A stretch of DNA of 64,000 bases from assembly GCA_947494145.1 (NCBI GenBank), contig CANLTZ010000013.1:1-64000 (forward strand), read 5' to 3'. Made by a program: the position numbers and the translations under genes. Under the pieces are notes generated by a model. It searched no databases, was not told the DNA's origin, and saw only the letters and a program-made list of their open reading frames with translations. This document shows positions 14,909-29,933 of the stretch, one piece after another (position 1 is the stretch's first letter; each line of letters starts with the position of its first letter). The DNA comes from an uncultured Jannaschia sp. Lineage in GTDB: Bacteria > Pseudomonadota > Alphaproteobacteria > Rhodobacterales > Rhodobacteraceae.

Positions 14909-15505
14909 TCAGTTTTGCAGGCCCCGGCGCTGCATTTCCAAAGGGATATTGAAGAGGCTCGCACCCAGGGACGTATTGGTCTGCATGTCGCCCAGCACCA
15001 CCGTGGTCTGGTTGCCGGTGTCGTCGGTGATGACCCATTGGCGCAGCGTGACCGGGGCGGGGGTGAAGACCAGTTGGATACGTCCGGCCTGCGGATTATC
15101 GGGGTCTTGCAAGGTGATGGCCGTCTGAGTGGCGTCGCCGCCATGGCCCACAACCATGCCCGACCGGCCCAGATCGACATTTTCGGCCAGAATGATGGAA
15201 AGGGGGGTTTGAGACAGCGGATATTGTTCGGGCGGGGTGTTGGAGACGGGGTCGAACACGGCCACCTGGCCGCCACCCGCGATCACGAGGCCCTTGTTGG
15301 GCGCGTCGTAGTCGAAGCGCGCGCGGCCCGGGCGTTGCAGGCTCAGATCCCCGGTGGACAGGCTGCCATCCCCGTTGATCTGTGTGAACTCCGCCTGGGC
15401 CGACCGGAAGGAGTTGAGATAGCGGCTGATATCGTTGACCGAGACTTCGGCCAAGGCGGGCAGGGCAAGCGAAGCGAAAGCTGTGGCGAGGGCGAGGATG
15501 CGCAT
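14909..15505 (-). CDS. lolA: Outer-membrane lipoprotein carrier protein LolA
   Basis: 198 aa from ATG at 15505. The signal peptide is MRILALATAFASLALPALA|EVS. The family pattern follows: ISRYLNSFRSAQAEFTQI, then GDLSLQRPGRARFDYD and VAVFDP, with late LRQWVITDD. LolA carries lipoproteins across the periplasm from LolCDE to LolB. A longer frame exists upstream but lacks the signal-peptide arrangement. In many alphaproteobacteria lolA lies next to ftsK; here ftsK is about 11.6 kb away. Confidence 0.88.
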   Translation of the reverse strand: MRILALATAFASLALPALAEVSVNDISRYLNSFRSAQAEFTQINGDGSLSTGDLSLQRPGRARFDYDAPNKGLVIAGGGQVAVFDPVSNTPPEQYPLSQTPLSIILAENVDLGRSGMVVGHGGDATQTAITLQDPDNPQAGRIQLVFTPAPVTLRQWVITDDTGNQTTVVLGDMQTNTSLGASLFNIPLEMQRRGLQN

Positions 15506-15763
15506 GGGGCGGCTCCGACGGTGACGTGTCTTTGGCTGACATATAGGGGTCGGTGGCGCGAAATGCCCAACGTTATGGGATAGCGCGGCGGCGCGGGGCG
15601 GTATCGGGCCGGGTTTGGGGGCTGCGTGTGTATGCGCCTCGACGTTGCGTTGGGCCACCTTCGGCACGGCTCGGCTCCCTTGGGCAAACGCCATCCTTCG
15701 GTGCCAATGAAGTCCCGCCCCTCATATCCTTGACGATAGAAATGGTTTATCCTCCCCGCCTAG

Positions 15764-16699
15764 ATGATCAAAAGCCAACTCACCCTCAAGCAGCTCGAAG
15801 CCTTCTCTTTCGTCGTCGACACGGGCACGTTTCGCGCCGCCGCCAGCGCGCTGGGCACCACGCAGCCCAATATCTCTGCTCGCATTGCGGCGCTGGAGGC
15901 CGCGTTGGGGGTAACGCTGCTGGACAGGGATGCGGGCTCCGTCCGGTTGACGGCCAAAGGTGCGGATCTGCTGGCCAAGACGCGGCAGGTGCTTTGGGCG
16001 GGCGAGGCCTTGTTGGAGGAAGCGGGGCGCCGTGACCTGATCACCGAACGGCTGCGCCTTGGTGTGACGGAATTGGTCGCCTGCACGTGGCTGCAAGCCT
16101 TCCTGCGGCGCATGAAGGCGGCCTATCCGAACCTACGTGTCGAGCTGCAAGTGGATCTGTCCACCCGGATTGATGAAAACCTGTCCGATGGGCTGCTGGA
16201 CCTCGCCTTTCAGACCGGGCCCTTCAAGACCGCTTTGACTGGGACCGCCCCCTTGGGGGTGGAAGGCTATGCTTGGGCGGCCAGTCCCGACCTTGCGGCG
16301 ACGCTCGGCCCCGGCCCCGATCTGGCCCGGCTGTTCGCCCATCCGGTGCTGACCCATGCCAAGCATACCCAGGCGGGCCTGGCGCTGCATGCGGTGGCCG
16401 AGGCGCGGGGATGCGATATCGGCCAGATCGTCCATTCCAGCGCCCTGTCGGCCTGCCTGCCCATGGCGTGCGAAGGGTTCGGCGTGGCCTTGCTGCCCGA
16501 GGCGTTGATCCGTGCGGAGTTGGGGAATGGGCGCCTCGTGCCGCTTGACTGCGATTGGCTGCCCGACCCACTTTCGTTCTTTGCCCGCTACCGCGCCGAT
16601 GCGGCGCCTCTTTTCGTGGTGCAGGCGGCGGGTTTGGCGGCGGATGCGATGTCGGAAGATATCAAAAATCTATCGCACCAAGTAAATCAATCGATTTGA
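15764..16699 (+). CDS. LysR family transcriptional regulator (probable regulator of the hydantoinase cluster)
   Basis: 311 aa. The winged helix is at residues 5-65 (LTLKQLEAFSFVVDTGTFRAAASALGTTQPNISARIAALE) and ends LLDRDAGSVRLTAKG. The effector-binding domain follows, with a GVTELVACTWLQ start. It is transcribed toward the hyuA/hyuB-like operon and ends 63 bases before it. It could be a first gene of the operon or its local activator, with the roughly 260-base divergent space before it holding its promoter. The effector is unknown. Confidence 0.9.
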   Translation: MIKSQLTLKQLEAFSFVVDTGTFRAAASALGTTQPNISARIAALEAALGVTLLDRDAGSVRLTAKGADLLAKTRQVLWAGEALLEEAGRRDLITERLRLGVTELVACTWLQAFLRRMKAAYPNLRVELQVDLSTRIDENLSDGLLDLAFQTGPFKTALTGTAPLGVEGYAWAASPDLAATLGPGPDLARLFAHPVLTHAKHTQAGLALHAVAEARGCDIGQIVHSSALSACLPMACEGFGVALLPEALIRAELGNGRLVPLDCDWLPDPLSFFARYRADAAPLFVVQAAGLAADAMSEDIKNLSHQVNQSI

Positions 16700-16762
16700 T
16701 TTCTTGCCGCTGCTTCGGCTTCTTGGACGCGACGCACCCATCCCGTCGAGCCGGAGGCCCAT

Positions 16763-18841
16763 ATGACATCCCCTTCAACCCGGCTCGGCGTGGATATCGG
16801 CGGCACCTTCACGGATATCGTGCTTGAAACAGGGGGGCAGAGTTTTTCCAGCAAGGTGCTGACCACCTATGCCGCGCCCGAAGATGCCATCATCGACGGG
16901 ATGCACCAGGTCTGCGCAAAGGCGGCCATCCGCCCTGCGCAGATCGACCAGATAATTCACGGCACCACGCTCGCCACCAATGCGCTGATCGAACGGCGCG
17001 GCGCCAAGACCGCGCTGATCACCACCGAAGGCTTCCGCGACGTGATCGAAATGCGGACGGAAAGTCGGTTTGAGCAATATGACCTGAACCTGACCCTGCC
17101 CGAGCCGTTGCTGCCCCGCCACCGTCGTTTCACCGTGCCCGGCCGGGTGGATGCACGGGGGCAAATTCTGGTCGACCTGACCCGCGCCGATGTCGAAGCC
17201 GTGGTGGACCAGGTCGCCCAGGGCGGTTTCGCATCCGTCGCCGTGGGCTTGATCCATTCCTATCTGAACCCCGCCCATGAACGGCTGGTGCGTGATGTCC
17301 TGGCGGAGCGGCTGCCCGATATCTCGGTTTCGATCTCGTCGGAAGTGTCGCCCCAGATGCGCGAATATGAACGCTTCAACACCGTGGTCGCGAACGCCTA
17401 TATCAAGCCGCTCATGGCGTCCTATCTGGGCCGCCTGGAAGATCGCCTGCGTGGCGAAGGCGCCGATTGCCCCATCTTCCTGATGCATTCGGGCGGCGGT
17501 ATCATCGGCGTGCAGGATGCCGCTCAGTTCCCCGTCCGCCTGGTGGAATCGGGCCCTGCCGGGGGTGCCGTCTTCGCCGCTCATATCGCGGCGCGCCATG
17601 GCATCGACAAAGTGCTCAGCTTCGATATGGGCGGCACCACGGCTAAGATCTGCTTGATCAAGAACCAGACGCCCAAGACCTCCCGCGTGTTCGAAGTGGC
17701 GCGGACCTACCGGTTCAAGAAGGGCTCCGGCATGCCGATTTCCATTCCGGTGATCGACATGGTGGAAATCGGTGCCGGCGGCGGGTCGCTGGCCCATGTG
17801 GATGCCATGCGCCAGATCCGCGTGGGCCCCGAAAGCGCCGGATCCGAGCCCGGGCCCGCATGCTATGGGCGCGGCGGTGACCGCCCTGCCGTCACCGATG
17901 CCGACCTGGTGCTGGGCAAGCTGGATGCCGATAACTTCGCCGGTGGATCCATCCAATTGCACGCCCCGCAATCGGAAGCCGCCCTAAGCACCCATATCGG
18001 CGCCACCCTGGAGATGGCGGCCCCCACCGCCGCCTTCGGCCTGGCCGAAGTGGTGGACGAAAACATGGCCAATGCCGCGCGCGTCCACGCCGTGGAAAAC
18101 GGCGAAGACCTGAGCGACTACACCATGATCGCCTTCGGCGGTGCCGCCCCCCTCCATGCCGGGCGGTTGTGCGAAAAGTTGGGCATTGCGCGCTGCCTCG
18201 TGCCGCCGGGGGCGGGCGTGGGCTCTGCCATCGGGTTTCTACGCGCGCCTTTCAGTTTTGAAGCCAACCGCTCCGTCTACATGAAGCTCAGCGATTTCGA
18301 CCCGGAAACCATCCAGGCGCTTCTCATGGAGCTCAAATCTGAGGCCACGGGCTTTGTGCGCGGCTGCGCACCCACCGGCCCCATCCTGGCCGAGTTCAAG
18401 GTCTATATGCGCTATACCGGCCAAGGCTGGGAAATCCCTGTCACGTTGACCGAAGCCCAGGCCATGGCCCCCGACCGCGCCACGTTCGAGGCCCGGTTCG
18501 AGGAAGACTACACCAAGCTATTCGGTCGCCCCGTTGCGGGGATGGATATCGAAATCACCGTCTGGTCCGTGAACGCCACCACACCGCCCATTCCCGTGGA
18601 CCCGGTCGCGGCGATGGAGGGCACGGCCCCCGCTGCGACCACGGGCACGCGCCCCGTCTTCGACGCCGCCGCATCCCGCTTTGTCGACGCCGCTCTCCAC
18701 GACCGCGACGCGCTCATCCCCGACCAGCGCGCGCCGGGTCCCGCCGCCATCACCGAGGCGGAAACCACCATCATCATCCCCGCCAGCCGGGACGCGATCT
18801 GCCAGCCCGATGGCTGCATCGACATGGTCACGAAGGGATAG
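16763..18841 (+). CDS. Hydantoinase/oxoprolinase family protein, subunit A (HyuA-like)
   Basis: 692 aa ATP-dependent amidohydrolase subunit of the 5-oxoprolinase/N-methylhydantoinase family. The N-terminal GVDIGGTFTDIVL nucleotide-binding motif, HGTTLATNALIERRGAKTALITTEGF, the central SFDMGGTTAKICLI and the C-terminal AFGGAAPLHA all match the HyuA layout. The protein works with the B subunit encoded next (3-base gap). Known members hydrolyse 5-oxoproline, N-methylhydantoin or carbamoylated compounds, or carboxylate acetone. The substrate here cannot be read from the sequence. Confidence 0.93.
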   Translation: MTSPSTRLGVDIGGTFTDIVLETGGQSFSSKVLTTYAAPEDAIIDGMHQVCAKAAIRPAQIDQIIHGTTLATNALIERRGAKTALITTEGFRDVIEMRTESRFEQYDLNLTLPEPLLPRHRRFTVPGRVDARGQILVDLTRADVEAVVDQVAQGGFASVAVGLIHSYLNPAHERLVRDVLAERLPDISVSISSEVSPQMREYERFNTVVANAYIKPLMASYLGRLEDRLRGEGADCPIFLMHSGGGIIGVQDAAQFPVRLVESGPAGGAVFAAHIAARHGIDKVLSFDMGGTTAKICLIKNQTPKTSRVFEVARTYRFKKGSGMPISIPVIDMVEIGAGGGSLAHVDAMRQIRVGPESAGSEPGPACYGRGGDRPAVTDADLVLGKLDADNFAGGSIQLHAPQSEAALSTHIGATLEMAAPTAAFGLAEVVDENMANAARVHAVENGEDLSDYTMIAFGGAAPLHAGRLCEKLGIARCLVPPGAGVGSAIGFLRAPFSFEANRSVYMKLSDFDPETIQALLMELKSEATGFVRGCAPTGPILAEFKVYMRYTGQGWEIPVTLTEAQAMAPDRATFEARFEEDYTKLFGRPVAGMDIEITVWSVNATTPPIPVDPVAAMEGTAPAATTGTRPVFDAAASRFVDAALHDRDALIPDQRAPGPAAITEAETTIIIPASRDAICQPDGCIDMVTKG

Positions 18842-18844
18842 AAC

Positions 18845-20554
18845 ATGGTCCAAGACCCCTCCTCCGTCGCTTATCAAGTCATGTGGAACCGCCTGATTTC
18901 CGTCGTGGAAGAACAGGCCCAGGCCCTTGTGCGCACGGCCTTTTCCACCTCCGTGCGCGAAGCGGGCGACTTGTCGGCGGGGGTCTATGACACCCATGGC
19001 AACATGCTGGCCCAGGCCGTCACCGGCACGCCGGGCCATGTGAACGCCATGGCCGATGCCGTGGCCCATTTCATCCGCCGCATTGGGCGCCAGAACATCC
19101 ATGACGGCGATATCTACATCACCAACGACCCGTGGGAGGGGACGGGCCATCTGCATGACATCACCATGGTCACGCCGTCCTTCCACAATGGTCTGCTGGC
19201 GGGGTTCTTCGCGTGCACCGCCCATATCGTCGATATCGGCGGGCGCGGCTTCGGGGCGGATGCGGCCAGCGTCTACGAAGAAGGCCTCTATATCCCGATC
19301 ATGAAATTCGCCGCCGGCGGCGCGGTGGATGATACCCTGCTGCGCATTATCCGCGGCAACGTTCGCGAGCCGGACCAACTTGTCGGCGACATCTATGCCC
19401 TGGCCACCTGCAACGAGATCGGCCATCGCCGCCTGACAGAGATGATGGTGGAATTCGACCTCGACCATCTGGATGGCATCGCGGCCTTCATCCTCGACAA
19501 TTCCCGCCGCGCCACGTTGGAGCGGATCGCCGCCCTGCCGCGTCAATCGGCCACCGGTGAAATGGTGGTCGATGGCTTCGACACCCCCATCACGCTGCGG
19601 GCCACGGTCACGGTCGAGGGCGACCGGATCATCACCGACTTCACTGGCACGTCCGGTTTGGACGAGAAGGGCATCAACTGCCCACTTGTCTACACCAAGG
19701 CCTATGCCTGCTACGCGTTGAAAGTCGCCATCGCGCCTGAAATTCCCAACAACGCCGCCTCACTCGCCCCGTTCGAGGTGACGGCCCCGGCGGATACCAT
19801 CGTAAACGCGCTTCACCCCGCGCCGGTGGCGCTGCGTCATATCGTGGGCCATTTCGTGCCCGATGTGGTGTTCAACGCCTTCGACCAGATCGTGCCGGGC
19901 CTCGTGCCCGCTGAAGGCGCAGGCTGTTTATGCAACTTCCAGGTCTCGCTGCGCCCGCGCAGCGATGGGCCCGCGCCCGAAGGCGCGCGCCGGTCCGAGG
20001 TGCTGACCTTCAATTCCGGCGGCTCGGGCGCACGGCCCTGCCATGACGGGCTCAACGCCACGGCCTTCCCGTCGGGCGTGATGACCATGCCCATCGAGGC
20101 CACGGAACATGCAGGCCCCGTCATCATCTGGCGCAAGGAATTGCGGCCCGATTCAGGGGGCGCGGGTAAGACCCGCGGGGGCCTGGGCCAATACATGGAG
20201 GTGGGCGCGCAGGAAGGTCATGAATTCGACATCCAGGCCATGTTCGACCGCGCCGATCACCCCGCCCTGGGCCGCCGCGGCGGCGCCAGCGGTGCGCCGA
20301 CCACCATCGCGCGTAGCGATGGCGCGACCATGCGCGCCAAGGGCAAGCAATTCGTGCCCCATGGCGCGCGTGTCGTGATGGCCTTCCCCGGTGGCGCAGG
20401 CTACGGCGACCCGTCGGAACGGCCCCGGGACCTCGTCAAACGCGACTTGGCGTTGGGTTACATCTCGCCTGAAACCGCCGCCCGCGATTATGGCCTCAGC
20501 CCCGAAGACATCGTCGCCGTGCACGACGCCGTCGCAAAGGGGGACGCGCCATGA
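18845..20554 (+). CDS. Hydantoinase/oxoprolinase family protein, subunit B (HyuB-like)
   Basis: 569 aa, typical for HyuB. Signatures are the N-terminal VMWNRLISVVEEQAQALVRTAFS, then LSAGVYDTHGNMLAQAVTGTPGHV, YITNDPWEGTGHLHDITMV and FACTAHIVDIGG, with late GSGARPCHDGL and SGGAGKTRGGLGQ. The start ATG lies three bases after the hyuA stop, and its TGA overlaps the next ATG (ATGA). The heteromer with HyuA is an ATP-dependent ring-opening hydrolase or a carboxylase-like enzyme. The LysR gene upstream and the oxidoreductases downstream complete the operon. Confidence 0.92.
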   Translation: MVQDPSSVAYQVMWNRLISVVEEQAQALVRTAFSTSVREAGDLSAGVYDTHGNMLAQAVTGTPGHVNAMADAVAHFIRRIGRQNIHDGDIYITNDPWEGTGHLHDITMVTPSFHNGLLAGFFACTAHIVDIGGRGFGADAASVYEEGLYIPIMKFAAGGAVDDTLLRIIRGNVREPDQLVGDIYALATCNEIGHRRLTEMMVEFDLDHLDGIAAFILDNSRRATLERIAALPRQSATGEMVVDGFDTPITLRATVTVEGDRIITDFTGTSGLDEKGINCPLVYTKAYACYALKVAIAPEIPNNAASLAPFEVTAPADTIVNALHPAPVALRHIVGHFVPDVVFNAFDQIVPGLVPAEGAGCLCNFQVSLRPRSDGPAPEGARRSEVLTFNSGGSGARPCHDGLNATAFPSGVMTMPIEATEHAGPVIIWRKELRPDSGGAGKTRGGLGQYMEVGAQEGHEFDIQAMFDRADHPALGRRGGASGAPTTIARSDGATMRAKGKQFVPHGARVVMAFPGGAGYGDPSERPRDLVKRDLALGYISPETAARDYGLSPEDIVAVHDAVAKGDAP

Positions 20555-21762
20555 AAACCCAGGTCCCCGCCCATGGCCGCTATGACATCGTCATCATCGG
20601 CGGCGCGATCATGGGCGCCTCTGCCGCGTGGTTTCTGAGCGATGACAAGGATTTCGATGGCAGCATCCTCGTGGTAGATCGTGACCTGAGCTATGAGAAC
20701 ACGTCCACCATGCACACCAATTCCTGCATGCGGCAGCAATTCTCGACCGAGTTGAACGTTCGCATCAGCCAATTCGCCGCCGATTTCGTCAAGAACCTGC
20801 GCCACCACATGGACGGCGATGACCGGGTGCCCGACCTGTCCATCCGGTCCTTCGGCTACATGTACCTGGCCGACAATGATGCCTTCGCCGACACCTTGCG
20901 CGAAAGCCAGCAGGTGCAAGTGGCTGCCGGGGCCGCGACCCAGCTCATGACGCGGGACCAGATCAAGGCGGCCTATCCGTTCTACAATGTGGACGACATC
21001 GTCCTGGGCTCCATCAATTTGGTGGATGAAGGCTTTTGGGATGCCATGGCGGTCTTCGATTGGTGGCGCCGCTCGGCCCGGAACCGGGGTGTGGAATATA
21101 TTGAAAATGAGGTCGTGGCGATCAACCGTAACGTCGCTGGCACGTGCATCGAAAGCGTGACGCTGAAATCGGGTGAGGTCATTGGCTGCGGCCAGGTCTT
21201 GAACGCCTCGGGTCCGCGCGCCGCACAGACCGCGCAGATGGCGGGCATCGCGCTGCCGGTCGAGCCGCGCAAACGCTATTCCTGGGTCTTCAAGGCCGAC
21301 AAACCGCTGGATCGCGACCTGCCGCTGACCATCGACCCGTCCGGGGTCCATGTGCGCGAAAACGGCGGCGGCACCTATCAGTGTGGCGGCCATTCCGACA
21401 TTGACCCGGGCGTGGACCCCGATGATTTCAACATGGATTTCACGCTTTGGGAATCCCATATCTGGCCAATCCTGGCGACCCGCATCCCGCAATTTGAGGC
21501 AATCAAGGTCCAATCCGAATGGGCGGGGCACTATGCGTACAACATGTTCGACCATAATGCGATTTTGGGGCCCCACCCTGATCTCGGAAATTTCTTCTTC
21601 CTCAACGGTTTTTCCGGCCACGGGCTGCAACAATCGCCCGCCATGGGCCGCGGCACTGCCGAGATCATGGTCCATGGCGCGTACCGCACACTCGACATGT
21701 CCGCCTTCCATTTCGACCGTATCCCGGCGGGCCGCAAGATCATCGAAAAGGCGGTGATCTGA
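20551..21762 (+). CDS. FAD-dependent oxidoreductase (DAO/glycine oxidase-like)
   Basis: 403 aa flavoprotein of the D-amino-acid-oxidase superfamily. A Rossmann start (DIVIIGGAIMGASAAWFL) near residues 12-30 is followed by a basic-acidic segment after VVDRDLS. Late GHYAYNMFDHNAILGPHP and FLNGFSGHGLQQSPAMGRG are typical of DadA/FOXRED1-like oxidoreductases acting on imino or amino acids. ATG overlaps the HyuB stop by four bases. It may oxidise an amino or N-methyl product of the hydantoinase step; this is inference from context. There is no hydrophobic signal, so it is cytosolic. Confidence 0.87.
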   Translation: MKTQVPAHGRYDIVIIGGAIMGASAAWFLSDDKDFDGSILVVDRDLSYENTSTMHTNSCMRQQFSTELNVRISQFAADFVKNLRHHMDGDDRVPDLSIRSFGYMYLADNDAFADTLRESQQVQVAAGAATQLMTRDQIKAAYPFYNVDDIVLGSINLVDEGFWDAMAVFDWWRRSARNRGVEYIENEVVAINRNVAGTCIESVTLKSGEVIGCGQVLNASGPRAAQTAQMAGIALPVEPRKRYSWVFKADKPLDRDLPLTIDPSGVHVRENGGGTYQCGGHSDIDPGVDPDDFNMDFTLWESHIWPILATRIPQFEAIKVQSEWAGHYAYNMFDHNAILGPHPDLGNFFFLNGFSGHGLQQSPAMGRGTAEIMVHGAYRTLDMSAFHFDRIPAGRKIIEKAVI

Positions 21763-21793
21763 TCCCGCCTGCCCCAATGAAAGCTATGATCCG

Positions 21794-22633
21794 ATGAAGA
21801 AACTCGTCCTGACCGGCGCCGCCGGGCGCCTTGGCTCCTACCTGCGGGGGCCGTTGGCGAAGATGTGCGACAGCCTAGTCTCGTCCGACATCGCAGAGGC
21901 GCCGACCACGCTTTTGCCCAATGAAACCTATGTCCAGGCCGACCTTACGGACCTGGATGCCATGGTGGCGCTTCTGGCGGGCGCCGACATGGTCGTCCAT
22001 TTTGGTGCCATCGGGGATGAGGCGCCCTTCGACGTCCTTTGGGGCCCGAACTTCGTGGGCGCCTACAATATCTGGGAAGCAGCGCACCGGAACAGCCTGC
22101 GCCGGGTGGTCTATGCGTCGTCCATCCACGCGGTGGGGATGCACAAGAAGACCGAGTTCATCGGCATCGACGCACCCCACCGGCCCGACACGTTCTATGG
22201 CCTGGCCAAGTGCTTTGCCGAAGATCTGGCCAGTCTTTATTGGGACAAGCGCGGTCTGGAAGCTGTCTGCCTACGCATTCTAAGCTGCGCCCAGGTGTCG
22301 AACCCCCGGGCCGTGGGCACTTGGCTCAGCTACGATGACCTGATCCAACTGGTTCAACGGGCCATCGACACGCCCACCACCGGTTTTTCCATCATCTACG
22401 GCGTGTCCAACAATGACCGCGCGCCGGTCGATAACAGCAAGGCCCAGCATCTGGGCTACCGACCCCGCGACAATGCGGAGCCCATGGCGGCGTCGATCTT
22501 CGAGGAGGCCGGCCCGCTCGACCCCCACGACCCGGCGAATACCCACCATGGCGGCCCTTTCGCCGCCGTCGAGCTGGGCCATAGCGGTGTGGCCCATCTG
22601 AACCTGAACCCCGACGACGTCGCAAAGGAATGA
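21794..22633 (+). CDS. NAD-dependent epimerase/dehydratase, uronate-dehydrogenase-like
   Basis: 279 aa extended-SDR-type enzyme. It has the LTGAAGRLGSYLR nucleotide motif at residues 5-17, HFGAI in place of the NAG region, and catalytic FYGLAKCFAED (Tyr and Lys) with YASSIHAVG before it. The closest family I recognise is bacterial uronate dehydrogenase, with long stretches that align to the Agrobacterium-type Udh pattern (for example YDDLIQLVQRAI, and VDNSKAQHLGYRPRDNAE). Udh oxidises D-galacturonate/glucuronate to lactones with NAD+. Here the cluster context suggests another substrate. ATG at 21794, 31 bases after the preceding stop. Confidence 0.85.
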   Translation: MKKLVLTGAAGRLGSYLRGPLAKMCDSLVSSDIAEAPTTLLPNETYVQADLTDLDAMVALLAGADMVVHFGAIGDEAPFDVLWGPNFVGAYNIWEAAHRNSLRRVVYASSIHAVGMHKKTEFIGIDAPHRPDTFYGLAKCFAEDLASLYWDKRGLEAVCLRILSCAQVSNPRAVGTWLSYDDLIQLVQRAIDTPTTGFSIIYGVSNNDRAPVDNSKAQHLGYRPRDNAEPMAASIFEEAGPLDPHDPANTHHGGPFAAVELGHSGVAHLNLNPDDVAKE

Positions 22634-22637
22634 CCAC

Positions 22638-23339
22638 ATGGACAAAGTCGCTTTGATCACAGCGGGCGGCAGCGGCATGGGCGCCGACAGCGCCCGCGCC
22701 CTGGCCGCCGATGGCTTCAAGATCGGCATTCTGTCATCCTCGGGCAAAGGGGAGGCATTGGCCCACGAATTGGGCGGCGTCGGCATCACCGGCACCAACA
22801 AATCGACCGAGGATCTGCAAAAGCTGGTCGACGCGGCCATGGCCCATTGGGGCCGCGTGGACGTGTTGGTGAACTCGGCCGGGCATGGCCCCCGCGCCCC
22901 GGTCTTGGAGCTGTCGGACGAAGACTGGCACGAAGGGATGGAGGTCTATCTGCTGAACGCCGTGCGCCCGACGCGGCTGGTCACGCCCATCATGCAGGCA
23001 CAAGGCGGCGGGGCGATCATCAATATCTCTACCTTTGCGGCGTTTGAACCGAACCCGGTATTCCCCACCTCAGGCGTGATGCGCGCCGGGTTGGCAGCTT
23101 TCACCAAGCTCTTCGCCGATAAATATGCTGCTGAGAATATCCGCATGAACAACGTCCTGCCGGGCTTCATCGACAGCCTACCCGAGAAGGAGGAATATCG
23201 GTCCCTGGTTCCTATGGGTCGCTACGGGAAATCGCTGGGCGAGATCGCAAGCGTCGTGGCGTTCCTGGCATCTGACGGCGGGGGCTACATCACGGGCCAG
23301 AACATCCGCGTGGATGGCGGGGTGACACGCTCGGTCTGA
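22638..23339 (+). CDS. SDR family protein lacking the YxxxK catalytic pair
   Basis: 233 aa short-chain dehydrogenase-like protein. Cofactor signature TAGGSGMG at residues 8-15, and VLVNSAGHGPRAPV. In the catalytic region, where most SDRs carry YxxxK, it reads PVFPTSGVMRAGLAAFTK, and a suitably placed Tyr and Lys are missing. The end is FIDSLPEKEEYRSLVPMGRYG, as in a small subfamily of atypical SDRs. It may therefore be a poor or altered oxidoreductase. ATG is five bases after the previous stop, and the gene is last in the operon. A hairpin repeat follows it. Confidence 0.82.
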   Translation: MDKVALITAGGSGMGADSARALAADGFKIGILSSSGKGEALAHELGGVGITGTNKSTEDLQKLVDAAMAHWGRVDVLVNSAGHGPRAPVLELSDEDWHEGMEVYLLNAVRPTRLVTPIMQAQGGGAIINISTFAAFEPNPVFPTSGVMRAGLAAFTKLFADKYAAENIRMNNVLPGFIDSLPEKEEYRSLVPMGRYGKSLGEIASVVAFLASDGGGYITGQNIRVDGGVTRSV

Positions 23340-25320: not shown

Positions 25321-25926
25321 ATGCAAAGCCTTGATCGCGCCTTTGTCCCTGAAGTTATGTTGTCAATCCTATGGATGCTGCACCAGCCCAATCGTCAGGC
25401 CCCACAGTCAGACTGCGCCGCAATGTTTCGAGTCGATACCAGCTTCCGCCGGGGCGCCTCCTTCGCGGGGCTGCATCCTGTTGCACCCGCCGAAAACCCG
25501 CAGGATGCCGATTGGCAGCCGGTGCAGGCATGGCTGGCCCGCATCAATGTCATTTCTGTACCGGGCGAGCCGGACGAGATGGGCCTGTGGCGATGCCACA
25601 TCCTGCACCCATCAGACGGCGTGATCTCCATCCTGCGATCCCGGGACGATATGCCGGACTGGCTGCCCCATGCCGTATTGCGGGTCTTCCTGGACGCCGC
25701 TGCGCAGGCCGAGCATATCCTGGGCTATGACCTCTGGGGCGAACCCTGGCTTGCCCCCTTGCCCATGGGTCCCGAGCCGCTGGAGGTACCGCCACACTTT
25801 CTGGCGCCGATGGAGGCCTTGCGCGCCTGTGGCTATTGCGAGGCGACGCGGCGCAAGGGTGTGCTGCTGTGGACCGAGAAGGTCGCCCCCCATATGGAAG
25901 CATTGGGGTTTTGGCCTGACGGGTAG
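25321..25926 (+). CDS. Uncharacterised protein, paralogue A of a local two-gene family
   Basis: 201 aa from ATG at 25321, preceded by GGAGACGCC (good ribosome site). I do not recognise the family. It aligns along most of its length to the C-terminal half-removed paralogue at 26172-27059: the shared pattern is (D)W-P-VLRVFL-AA-A-L-Y-WG-P-A-LP, then P-HF-P-EAL-A-G(C/Y)C...KG...W-E...PHMEA. Charge is balanced; there is no signal peptide or membrane segment. It ends about 36 bases before an ftsK-like relic on the opposite strand. It is about 90 residues shorter than paralogue B. Confidence 0.7.
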   Translation: MQSLDRAFVPEVMLSILWMLHQPNRQAPQSDCAAMFRVDTSFRRGASFAGLHPVAPAENPQDADWQPVQAWLARINVISVPGEPDEMGLWRCHILHPSDGVISILRSRDDMPDWLPHAVLRVFLDAAAQAEHILGYDLWGEPWLAPLPMGPEPLEVPPHFLAPMEALRACGYCEATRRKGVLLWTEKVAPHMEALGFWPDG

Positions 25927-25961
25927 GGGGCGAAACGGAGCCCTGGCGGCCCCCAGCTTTC

Positions 25962-26076
25962 CCCAGGGTCGGGCAGCAGGATGTCGTTCTTGCCGGTGTG
26001 GATGACGGCGTCGTTGTCTTCCTGTTGGACCATCAGCCGCTCGGCCTTGTTGTCGTCGATGGCGAGCTTGCCCTGG
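25962..26076 (-). pseudogene. Decayed duplicate of the ftsK 3' end (C-terminal DNA-recognition domain)
   Basis: Leftward-reading relic whose translation KLAIDDNKAERLMVQQEDND, continuing to [12 protein letters not shown], aligns with the true FtsK end ([20 protein letters not shown] through [12 protein letters not shown]). One three-codon deletion keeps the frame. By eye about three quarters of the bases match over 115 positions. The stop codon is missing: reading continues past PDPGE into ESWG. It is not attached to the rest of ftsK and lies between the two paralogous genes. It points to an old duplication. Confidence 0.75.
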
Positions 26077-26171
26077 ACAGCTGGCAGCTTGAAAGTCTTC
26101 GGCACGCATTGCGTCCCAGACTGGACGGACCCAGCCAAAGAAGTGTCAGAAACTTCTGCGACGCATCCGGT

Positions 26172-27059
26172 ATGTCGAATCTCCATCAAAAAACCAACGC
26201 TTGGGTTCGCGCGTGCCTACACACGGTTTTCTGGATGAACGTCGTGCAGTCGTCCCGCTATGACGATTCCGCCTTGGCGTCAGGCACGCTGACACCAAGG
26301 CCGGATGTGGTGGCTGGTGATCGATATCAGAGCTATGGTCTTGAGACTGAGTTTGACTGGCTGATCGAGCGAGACTTCCAACGCATTGAGCGCTGGTGCC
26401 GCGATGAGGGGTTGATCCACATCCCAGACGACCCCGACGATATGAGCCTTTATCACGTTTCGATCTCGTGCAGCCCATCGAAGTTGTCCGAGGCTCTCTT
26501 AAGGATCGACGGGTTTGAAGACTGGATGCCGGAGACCGTGCTGCGGGTCTTTTTGTGGGAAGCTGCGTCGGCTGACCGACTGCTGACCTACGGTTATTGG
26601 GGCGATCCATACTTCGCTGCCCTTCCGACCACGCGAGATCCTACCCGGATGCCCGAACACTTTCGGCGTCCTTTGGAAGCGCTGGCAGCGGCGGGCTTTT
26701 GCAGCATCGGCGCGAAGGGCAGCTTTCGATGGCTCGAACCGATTGAGCCGCACATGGAAGCAGCACAGGTCTGGGTCAATGGTGCCTGTCAGAAGGAGGC
26801 GAGACGGCAGACCCTTATCCGCATCTGGGACACCATGCCCCTAGATCTGAAGAAGCCCTTCCTGGAAAGCGGAGCCGGTCTGGACGTGCTGTTGCTTGCG
26901 GCGCTCCTGGGGAGGTTTCATGCGGGTGACAGTTGGACCTATCGGCCGGGCGACCGACTTCCGCGCGGCGACGATATGCGCCTGGACATTCCGACGGCCA
27001 AGGAATTCGGCGCGATGTATCGCTTGGAAGGTTTGCCGGGTTGCCCACCGCCAAAGTAA
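26172..27059 (+). CDS. Uncharacterised protein, paralogue B of a local two-gene family
   Basis: 295 aa from ATG at 26172. This start was chosen because it lines up with the start of paralogue A (both M-x-x-L then a short hydrophobic stretch ending W-M); a longer frame would run backward across the ftsK relic. No known domain is recognised. Shared core with paralogue A: WMPETVLRVFLWEAA, YGYWGDPYFAALP, MPEHFRRPLEALAAAGFC and PHMEAAQVW. It adds a C-terminal region of about 90 residues (FLESGAGLDVLLLAALLGRF). It is convergent with ftsK, 62 bases apart. Confidence 0.68.
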   Translation: MSNLHQKTNAWVRACLHTVFWMNVVQSSRYDDSALASGTLTPRPDVVAGDRYQSYGLETEFDWLIERDFQRIERWCRDEGLIHIPDDPDDMSLYHVSISCSPSKLSEALLRIDGFEDWMPETVLRVFLWEAASADRLLTYGYWGDPYFAALPTTRDPTRMPEHFRRPLEALAAAGFCSIGAKGSFRWLEPIEPHMEAAQVWVNGACQKEARRQTLIRIWDTMPLDLKKPFLESGAGLDVLLLAALLGRFHAGDSWTYRPGDRLPRGDDMRLDIPTAKEFGAMYRLEGLPGCPPPK

Positions 27060-27121
27060 GGATTGGCATAGACTGAAGATCAGGCTTGCTGGTTTGGTCG
27101 GGATGCAAGTTTGGCGCAGCC

Positions 27122-29923
27122 CTACTCCCCCGGGTCGGGCAGTAGAATGTCGCGCTTGCCCACGTGGTTGGCAGGGGTGACGGCGCCATTGTCTTCCATC
27201 TGTTCCACCAGACGGGCGGCCTTGTTGTAGCCGATGCCCAGCTTGCGCTGGATGTAGGAGGTGGAGCATTTGCGGTCGCGGGCCACGATAGCCACGGCCT
27301 GGTCATACAGCGCGTCTTCCCCGCCCGTATTGCCCCCGGTCAGGCCCAGCACAGCGTCGATGTCGGACGACTTTTCGTCATCCGGCCCGTCAAGCACGCT
27401 GGCCGCGTATTCGGGTGGCCCGAAGCTCTTGAGGTGGTTGACGATTTCCTCGACCTCCTCGTCCGAGCAGAAGGGCCCGTGGACGCGGGTGATCTTGGAG
27501 CCACCGGCCATGTAGAGCATGTCACCCATGCCCAGCAGTTGTTCTGCCCCCATCTCACCCAGGATGGTCCGTGAATCGATCTTGGACGTCACGTGGAAGC
27601 TGATCCGGGTGGGGAAGTTGGCCTTCACCGTGCCTGTGATCACATCCACCGAAGGGCGCTGCGTGGCCATGACGAGGTGGATGCCCGAGGCGCGGGCCAT
27701 TTGGGCCAGGCGCTGAATACAGGCCTCGATCTCCTTGCCGGCGACCATCATCAGATCGGCCATCTCGTCCACGACAACGACGATATAGGGCAGCTTTTCG
27801 GGCACGGTTTCTTCGGTCTCGAAGACGGGCTCTCCCGTTTCCTCATCAAAGCCGGTCTGCACCGTGCGAGAGAACATCTCTCCCTTGGCCAAGGTTTCGG
27901 CCACGCGGGCGTTATAGCCTTCGATGTTGCGCACGCCCATCTTGGACATCTTGCGGTAGCGTTCCTCCATCTCGCCCACGGTCCATTTCAGGGCGACGAC
28001 GGCTTTCTTGGGGTCCGTGACGACGGGGGACAGCAGGTGCGGGATGCCATCATAGACGCTGAGTTCCAGCATCTTCGGGTCGATCATGATCAGGCGGCAT
28101 TCCTCGGGCGTCAGCTTGTAGAGAAGGCTCAGGATCATGGTGTTGATCGCCACCGACTTGCCCGAGCCCGTGGTGCCCGCGATCAAGAGGTGGGGCATCT
28201 TGGCGAGGTTCGCGACCACGGGCGCGCCGCCGATATCCTTGCCCAAGGCCAGGGGCAGCGCCATGGAGCTGTCGCCGAAATCGCGGCCCGACAGGATTTC
28301 GCGCAGCACCACCTTTTCGCGCCGTTCATTGGGCAGTTCGATGCCGATGACGGAGCGCCCGGGGATGGTCGAAACCCGGGCCGATAGCGCGGACATCGAC
28401 CGCGCGATGTCGTCTGCCAACCCGATCACGCGCGATGCTTTCAGCCCCGCTGCGGGCTCCAATTCGTACATGGTGACGACGGGGCCGGGGCGGACGGAGA
28501 CGATTTCGCCCTTTACGCCGTAATCGTCCAGCACGGCCTCCAGCATCCGGGCGTTCTGCTCCAACGCATCGTCGCTCAGGTGATGGCGTTCAACGGTCGA
28601 CGGGTCGGTCAGGAGGGCCAGCGGTGGCTTTTCATAGGCGGCGGTGGGTTCTTCGAATTGCAGCGCAGGCTGCGCCTCGGCCCGGGCCTGCTTCGACGGC
28701 TGGACGGGCTTGGCCTGGGGCTGCACGACCTTGCGGGCGAAGGTCGGGATGGATGGGGCGGGTGTTGGCACAGCGGCTATCTCGGGCCCCAAATCTTGCT
28801 CGATCTCAACCTCCGGCGCGGCCGCAATGGCGGCATCGGCGGCCTGGAGGGCGGCGCTCAGCACCGGCTCCGCCCGCTCGGTCGGGTGGGCATGGGGTGT
28901 GGGCGACAGCGTGGGCTCCACCCGGTCCGTCGGGGTCAAGGGCGGCTCAGTCCGGGCGGTGAGGGCCGGTTCCGCTGTACGCGGGGTCTGGAGCGCCTGG
29001 GTGATGTTCGCACGACGCACACGGGTGCGCACCGCGCTGGCGATGCGTGCGCGGACGCGATCTTCTTCGGGCGCGTCGGCGTCGAAGGGTGCCGTATCGG
29101 ACGATGCATCGCCCATGCCGCGGCCCGGCAGCCAGGACAGAAGACCCGGGCGCGGGGCCTCCGGCTCTTCGATCAGGGGGGCGTCCAGGTCTGGCGCATC
29201 GGGCGCGGCCCGGCGGGCGGCGGCTTTTTCGCGCAGGGCAGCGGTGCCTTTTGCGGTACCTTTGGCCGTGACTTGGGCCGCCTGCCGCGTCAGCACCCGG
29301 CCCAGGGCCATGGCGCTTCCAAGTCCCGCCAGGAAGAAGACCAACGCCTTGCGCATGTCGTCGCGGGTGAAGCCCAACACCCAGGCGCCCGTCAGCACCG
29401 CGGCGCCCGCAATCACGAAGGAGAAGAGTTTCAGGCCCACAGCCCCCGGCACGGGTAAAATCTGCAACAGCGCGCCGAGGCCCATATCACCAAACAGACC
29501 ACCCATGCCGAAATCGTGGCTCCAATCGCCCGGCGGCACCAGCGATGCGGAATAGAGCGACAGGATCAGCACCCAACCGGGTACGAACAGCGCGCGCGGC
29601 AGGGCGCGTTCCGACCCGGCATGCATGGCGAAACGCATCCCCCAGACAATCAGCCCTGCCCCCAAGCCGAGTGCCCCATGGCCTAGGATCAGCACCATGG
29701 GCCCGGCCAGCGATGCGCCGAACAGGCCCAGCCAGTTGCGCGGCGGCGCATCGGTGGCGGCCAGCCAGCTTGGGTCTTCGGGATGATAGGTCAGCAGCAT
29801 GACGGCAATGGCCAGCCCCGCCAGCGCCATCAACAGGCCCAGCCCTTCGCGCCCCCGGCGGGCCAGGCTGATCTGCATGTTGCTGTCGATGAGGGGATCG
29901 CGTTGCCGCACCTGATAGGCCAT
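27122..29923 (-). CDS. ftsK: DNA translocase FtsK
   Basis: 933 aa. Four N-terminal membrane segments (first near residues 28-46, [17 protein letters not shown]) are followed by a proline/alanine-rich acidic linker (about residues 250-420). The motor has Walker [18 protein letters not shown] around residue 585 and Walker [14 protein letters not shown] about 130 residues later, plus [13 protein letters not shown]. The terminal winged-helix DNA-recognition part ends DILLPDPGE. It segregates chromosome dimers at the septum with XerCD. ATG at 29923 (a TTG codon precedes) follows AAGAGGAT. Its own 3' end is duplicated at 25962-26076. Confidence 0.96.
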
Positions 29924-29933
29924 CAAAATCCTC

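What the first reader, a model, noticed from the sequence alone, without database searches (positions are those of the whole stretch)
25962..27252. Decayed duplicate of the ftsK 3' end between two paralogous genes
Seen directly: on the minus strand, 25962-26076 translates as KLAIDDNKAERLMVQQEDND through [12 protein letters not shown], aligning with the ftsK C-terminus (27129-27252) including a three-codon deletion and no stop. Inference: either a tandem duplication of the block [unknown gene plus ftsK 3' end], or an element that used the ftsK 3' end as insertion site and left a target copy. The same-orientation direct repeats enclose paralogue B, which fits either model. A functional role for the relic, such as an anti-sense or recombination site, is open.
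Basis: partly seen in the sequence, partly recalled or inferred. Interest (0 to 1): 0.75.

Follow-up and report, generated by a model that had tools for sequence, protein, structure and literature searches.

The report
Displaced ftsK tail beside inserted gene
Next to the cell-division gene ftsK of a marine bacterium (genus Jannaschia) lies a decayed copy of the gene's last 40 codons, most likely the old gene end pushed aside when foreign DNA carrying an extra gene and a fresh ftsK end recombined in; it is an informative fossil of gene acquisition rather than a working part.

Summary
Minus-strand 25959-26078 is the last 40 codons of ftsK (78% nt identity, one in-frame 3-codon deletion, stop lost). 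It is neutrally decayed: 27 differences fall 7/9/11 on codon positions. The insertion model is right in outline, but no integrase was seen among the neighbouring genes scanned, and a second case breaks at a different codon. That case (G164, another genus of the family) has the ftsK tail repeated 688 bp downstream around a lone ORF; its two tails differ by 15 synonymous and 1 nonsynonymous change, so they are diverged orthologues brought together, not an in-situ copy. Best explanation: homology-facilitated illegitimate recombination. Linear DNA carrying [ftsK end + new gene] paired in ftsK on one side, joined illegitimately inside the resident ftsK end on the other, and displaced the old tail. 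Closest precedent: Vibrio T6SS immunity arrays. A and B belong to a rare family of unknown function. Two of 394 family genomes sampled show such a tail copy. Ordinary in kind, informative as a footprint.

The parts
25959..26078 (-). relic: displaced last 40 codons of ftsK (3-codon in-frame deletion, stop lost)
   Evidence: alignment and codon-position counts; genome searches
27122..29926 (-). intact ftsK; its 3' end 27125-27253 is the partner of the relic
   Evidence: PF01580, PF13491, PF17854 and PF09397 matches
26172..27059 (+). gene B, 295 aa, family of unknown function, between the two ftsK ends and convergent with ftsK
   Evidence: ORF, start chosen from the alignment; no Pfam, NCBIfam or PADLOC match and one insignificant PHROGs match
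25321..25926 (+). gene A, paralogue of B (201 aa from this start; 25243 is an alternative start), lacking about 80-90 C-terminal residues of its homologues, convergent with the relic
   Evidence: alignment; A versus B
25927..25958 (.). join between truncated A and the relic end (32 bp after A's stop)
   Evidence: sequence
26079..26171 (.). inferred illegitimate join (B upstream sequence to the inside of the old ftsK end) and B leader
   Evidence: homology to ftsK stops at about 26078; join inferred
27060..27121 (.). 62 bp between the convergent ends of B and ftsK
   Evidence: sequence

Best explanation
A linear piece of chromosomal DNA from a close relative, carrying gene B and the 3' end of that relative's ftsK, entered the cell. 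It paired with the resident ftsK by homology on one side. Its non-homologous end, beyond B, was joined illegitimately inside the last ~120 bp of the resident ftsK. The incoming ftsK end became the working end of the gene, B was gained, and the old ftsK tail was pushed outward next to gene A, where it decayed. Shown: the duplicated tail, its neutral decay, the A/B/ftsK order, the great difference in divergence between A/B and the relic, and a second, fresher case in another genus whose two tails differ almost only synonymously. Inferred: the direction of transfer, that the current tail is the donor's, and the carrier (gene transfer agent or natural transformation).
For: Relic and ftsK share the C-terminal GE, seen in 0 of the 19 congener tails listed, so the donor was this lineage or close kin. 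A/B divergence far exceeds relic divergence and the flanks are unlike. G164 tails over 53 codons: 15 synonymous and 1 nonsynonymous difference, 0 of 4,000 neutral simulations as low; they are closer to each other (14 of 147 bases) than either is to any of 36 other tails compared (nearest 21). The insert there is one ORF found in 1 of 244 genomes searched, its own. Breakpoints differ between the two cases and no integrase was seen. A GTA marker (PF13547, E 6.9e-139) is in the own genome. PMC5361080 proposes the same mechanism for Vibrio arrays (passages and section 13 read).
Against: In the window itself the relic is too decayed to show the synonymous signature: its 7/9/11 pattern fits an in-situ copy equally well. 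Divergence of the own ftsK from 13 congeners shows no clear jump at the boundary; only the last 22 codons stand out (positions 1+2 0.091 against 0.024 among congeners, position 3 0.462 against 0.326), and the GE ending is part of that, so no donor segment is plainly visible. No strain with only [A, ftsK] or only [B, ftsK] was found. By local search A is the closest relative of B found (39% and E 9.6e-30, against 32% and 1.6e-22 for J. aquimarina), as a duplication would also give, though in the full alignment all four homologues stand at 30%.
Confidence: 0.55

Rival explanations
1. Tandem duplication of [X gene + ftsK 3' end] in this lineage, after which A and B diverged very fast, for example under diversifying selection.
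For: The unit X-then-ftsK-end occurs twice in the same order and orientation; A is the closest relative of B by local search; the relic pattern fits an in-situ copy.
Against: A and B share 44% nt and 31% at codon position 3, while the neutral relic keeps 78%; upstream and downstream flanks share nothing above shuffles. Positions 1 and 2 are better conserved than position 3, so A and B evolved as constrained genes, which would be slower than the relic. In the full alignment A is no nearer to B than the other homologues are (30% each).
Confidence: 0.2
2. Site-specific integration of a small mobile element at the ftsK 3' end, its integrase since lost; the relic is the displaced attB side.
For: Displacement of a gene 3' end is typical of such elements (recalled); some Streptococcus ICEs use the ftsK 5' end (PMC4701971, passages read).
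Against: No recombinase was seen in the 1.2 kb segment or among the neighbouring genes scanned; the second case has another breakpoint and a 0.5 kb insert holding one ORF without a Pfam match; repeats of ~120-160 bp are longer than the 12-54 bp given for streptococcal ICEs with a site-specific tyrosine integrase; 0 of the 29 genomes behind L004-L032 had a second tail match.
Confidence: 0.12
3. Campbell-type single crossover of a circular molecule carrying B and an ftsK end into ftsK, without a recombinase.
For: Gives the same repeat order around B (inference from the order seen).
Against: It leaves a direct repeat that should recombine out again; no circular source was found (no plasmid DNA match). 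It differs from the best explanation only in the form of the incoming DNA.
Confidence: 0.1
4. The relic is retained for a function, such as a small protein or an antisense or regulatory stretch for A or B.
For: Open frame of 127 aa, in-frame deletion only.
Against: Neutral codon pattern (456 of 4,000 simulations have as few nonsynonymous changes); 2,145 of 4,000 neutral simulations also lack stops; no Pfam match; no Rfam match.
Confidence: 0.03

Closest known systems
Homology-facilitated illegitimate recombination (Acinetobacter, Streptococcus and Pseudomonas work, as cited in PMC5361080; those papers not read)
   Same: One-sided homology anchor and a non-homologous join, bringing in foreign DNA beside a resident gene.
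   Different: Here it is read from a natural footprint at a core division gene, not from an experiment; the illegitimate join is too old to inspect for microhomology.
Orphan immunity-gene arrays with displaced effector 3' ends in Vibrio cholerae T6SS loci (PMC5361080)
   Same: A new module inserts, the old gene end is shifted outward and the old cargo gene is kept beside it.
   Different: The anchor is a housekeeping gene that stays intact, and the cargo genes A and B have no proven immunity role.
Integrative elements that use ftsK as a site in Streptococcus (PMC4701971)
   Same: ftsK serves as the insertion target.
   Different: Those use the 5' end and a tyrosine integrase with short repeats; here it is the 3' end, with no recombinase seen and long repeats of differing length.

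Membership tests
Homology-facilitated illegitimate recombination footprint | foreign segment bounded on one side by homologous sequence, with duplication or displacement of the resident copy | tested here: met
   ftsK end present twice around B; that B is foreign rests on its rarity (3 of 60 relatives match, own genome included) and is inference
Homology-facilitated illegitimate recombination footprint | the two copies are diverged orthologues (synonymous differences) | tested here: inconclusive
   met in G164 (15 synonymous, 1 nonsynonymous), not resolvable in the window, where decay dominates
Homology-facilitated illegitimate recombination footprint | microhomology at the illegitimate join | not testable with these tools
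   neither parental sequence of the join is available
Tandem duplication | whole unit duplicated with like age along its length, flanks included | tested here: not met
   A/B 44% nt against relic 78%; flanks at shuffle level
Site-specific integrative element | recombinase gene in the element | tested here: not met
   none in A or B or in the neighbours scanned; loss cannot be excluded
Site-specific integrative element | constant breakpoint | tested here: not met
   43 against 53 codons before the ftsK stop
Immunity protein family (for A and B) | match to a known immunity profile | tested here: not met
   no Pfam, NCBIfam or PADLOC match; only the neighbour of a J. aquimarina homologue is Imm11

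The most novel reading that the evidence does not exclude
The ftsK 3' flank is a recurrent landing place in Rhodobacteraceae where single orphan genes of rare families are gained with a fresh ftsK end from kin, stacking alternative alleles (here A and B as former alternatives at one locus) and leaving the displaced ftsK tails as dated markers of each gain, possibly driven by gene transfer agents.
Probability: 0.2. Interest if true: 0.6.

Novelty: new member of a known kind. Interest (0 to 1): 0.4.

Why it matters
Single genes gained without a mobile element rarely show how they came in. A displaced end of a conserved gene records which side paired by homology, where the illegitimate join fell, and (through its synonymous and neutral changes) how far the donor was and how old the event is. 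Two independent cases at the same core gene make the idea testable by counting such tails across genomes.

Tried and rejected
Tandem duplication: judged unlikely on A/B divergence and flanks. Site-specific integration: no recombinase seen and no constant breakpoint. Foreign origin of the current ftsK end: no clear jump in divergence, only a somewhat more diverged last 22 codons. Other genomes with extra tail matches: besides the own genome and G164, 6 of 394 family genomes had two or more matches; in all 6 the extra matches are gamma-like domains inside other open frames. Plasmid DNA like the A-B segment: no match. Viral contigs encoding a close relative of B: no match to its patterns. Structure of B from 3 sequences: mean pLDDT 61.8, 0 PDB matches at E 0.001 or better. 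E. coli ftsK tail: 5,383 places in 5,375 records, against 5,380 places for the motor region; I did not inspect the few extra places, so this neither supports nor excludes tail copies there. The genome-contig scan for the A/B family used a single pattern and found one locus, so the family's spread is under-sampled. In the listing about a thousand characters around L015-L017 were cut; one search repeats the neighbourhood count (28 of 29 loci, L031 dropped because its tail motif was not found). Slips: the ftsK end was taken one base too long, so its printed translation is out of frame (the alignment is not affected); one search was out of register and was redone; the gene map is mechanical and shows some antisense frames (L049, L051).

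Full report
Setting. The window lies in a genome of the genus Jannaschia: its congener G016 holds a contig (C39) of the same length, 10,357, as the record titled Jannaschia aquimarina GSW-M26 contig 39, with the same homologue of B on it. ftsK occupies 27122-29926 on the minus strand with all FtsK domains. In 20 of 28 relatives whose ftsK end could be placed, lolA lies within 1.5 kb downstream; ppk2 lies there in 4; one or the other in 21 (15 of the 19 congeners); A or B in none (29 loci given, L031 dropped). In the window lolA (14912-15694) is 11.4 kb from ftsK, and the interval holds a LysR gene, hydantoinase A and B, an FAD oxidoreductase, an epimerase, an SDR, PPK2, a DUF4336 gene, A, the relic and B. 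The flank is therefore a variable place.

The relic. Minus-strand 25959-26078 carries the last 40 codons of fts[41 protein letters not shown] against [43 protein letters not shown]. Local score 123 against at most 35 in 500 shuffles. Differences by codon position are 7, 9 and 11 of 40 each, while ftsK of this genome and of 13 congeners differ by 0, 0-1 and 10-14 over 38 of these codons (the last two were left out of that count). By pathway counting the relic pair has 17.2 nonsynonymous and 9.8 synonymous differences against a neutral mean of 19.8 nonsynonymous. So the relic has evolved like non-coding DNA. It keeps the GE ending that ftsK has here and that 0 of the 19 congener tails listed have, so it comes from this lineage or close kin. 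Its third-position distance to ftsK (11 of 40) is about that between congeners (10-14 of 38), so the event is old.

Genes A and B. They are paralogues with no Pfam, NCBIfam or PADLOC match and one insignificant PHROGs match for B. Over 200 aligned codons they share 31.5% aa and 44% nt (positions 1, 2 and 3: 48, 53 and 31%), with no similarity above shuffles in their flanks. That is far more divergence than the relic shows, so one tandem duplication of [gene + ftsK end] cannot explain both unless A and B evolved faster than neutral DNA. A lacks about 80-90 C-terminal residues present in B, J. aquimarina and two Roseibium homologues. The family is rare: with B as query, 3 of 60 relatives and 7 of 394 family genomes match, the own genome included; apart from the own genome and J. 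aquimarina the matches are weak (E 7e-5 or worse). Two Roseibium plasmids hold 25% identical homologues. The J. aquimarina homologue lies beside an Imm11 immunity gene (PF07791) and near a SIR2-domain gene, which hints at a conflict-related role but does not show one.

A second case. With the last 45 residues of ftsK as query, 377 of 394 family genomes match; 8 have more than one match, the own genome included. Re-searching the other 7: in 6 the extra matches are gamma-like domains inside other open frames; G164 has a true copy. There (L078) the ftsK tail, 53 codons plus stop, is repeated 688 bp downstream (89% over 167 nt), and the gap holds one main ORF of 161 aa with no Pfam match, found in 1 of 244 genomes searched, its own. 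The two tails differ at 16 bases over 53 codons: 15 synonymous and 1 nonsynonymous, against a neutral mean of 11.9 nonsynonymous (0 of 4,000 simulations as low); the stop codons differ too (TGA, TAA). Over 49 codons the two differ at 14 of 147 bases, while the nearest of 36 other tails compared, a Jannaschia, is 21 away and the three other species of its own genus are 23-27 away. Two working ftsK ends of close but distinct origin were thus brought together by recombination.

Mechanism. The simplest account of both cases is homology-facilitated illegitimate recombination: incoming DNA with [ftsK end + gene] pairs in ftsK, its far end joins inside the resident ftsK tail, the gene is gained and the old tail displaced. 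In the window this also explains why A faces the relic as B faces ftsK: A would have been the resident neighbour and B the donor's neighbour of ftsK. The missing stop of the relic and the short A could come from one later deletion (inference). [quoted passage not shown] The Vibrio precedent is PMC5361080 (passages and section 13). Searches for prior notice: Jannaschia with ftsK gives 0 papers; ftsK with island terms gives, among 37 papers of which 12 were listed, streptococcal ICEs that use the ftsK 5' end. I saw no report of displaced ftsK tails in these searches (listings mostly), which cover openly licensed papers only.

Limits. The window alone cannot separate an in-situ copy of the tail from a donor's tail; the G164 case carries that point. 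No donor or intermediate strain was seen. The frequency (2 of 394, drawn at about one genome per genus, matches at E 0.01 or better) is a rough lower bound.

Noticed in passing
L071, L072, L074, L075, L076: FtsK gamma-like DNA-binding domains occur in non-FtsK proteins of Rhodobacteraceae; in these five they share a C-terminal part resembling DUF2312/GapR (name recalled, not tested). Related matches occur in Rhodobacter phages.
   Followed up: partly
L044:4052-9573: J. aquimarina homologue of B sits beside an Imm11 immunity gene and near a large SIR2-domain protein, a possible conflict or defence island.
   Followed up: partly
window 15764-23336: A block (LysR, hydantoinase A and B, FAD oxidoreductase, epimerase, SDR) separates lolA from the ppk2-ftsK side; 15 of 19 congeners keep lolA or ppk2 within 1.5 kb of ftsK.
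   Followed up: partly
window 25998-26171, + strand: The open frame of B runs upstream through the relic in antisense, so automatic gene calling could give B a false N-terminus of 58 residues.
   Followed up: yes
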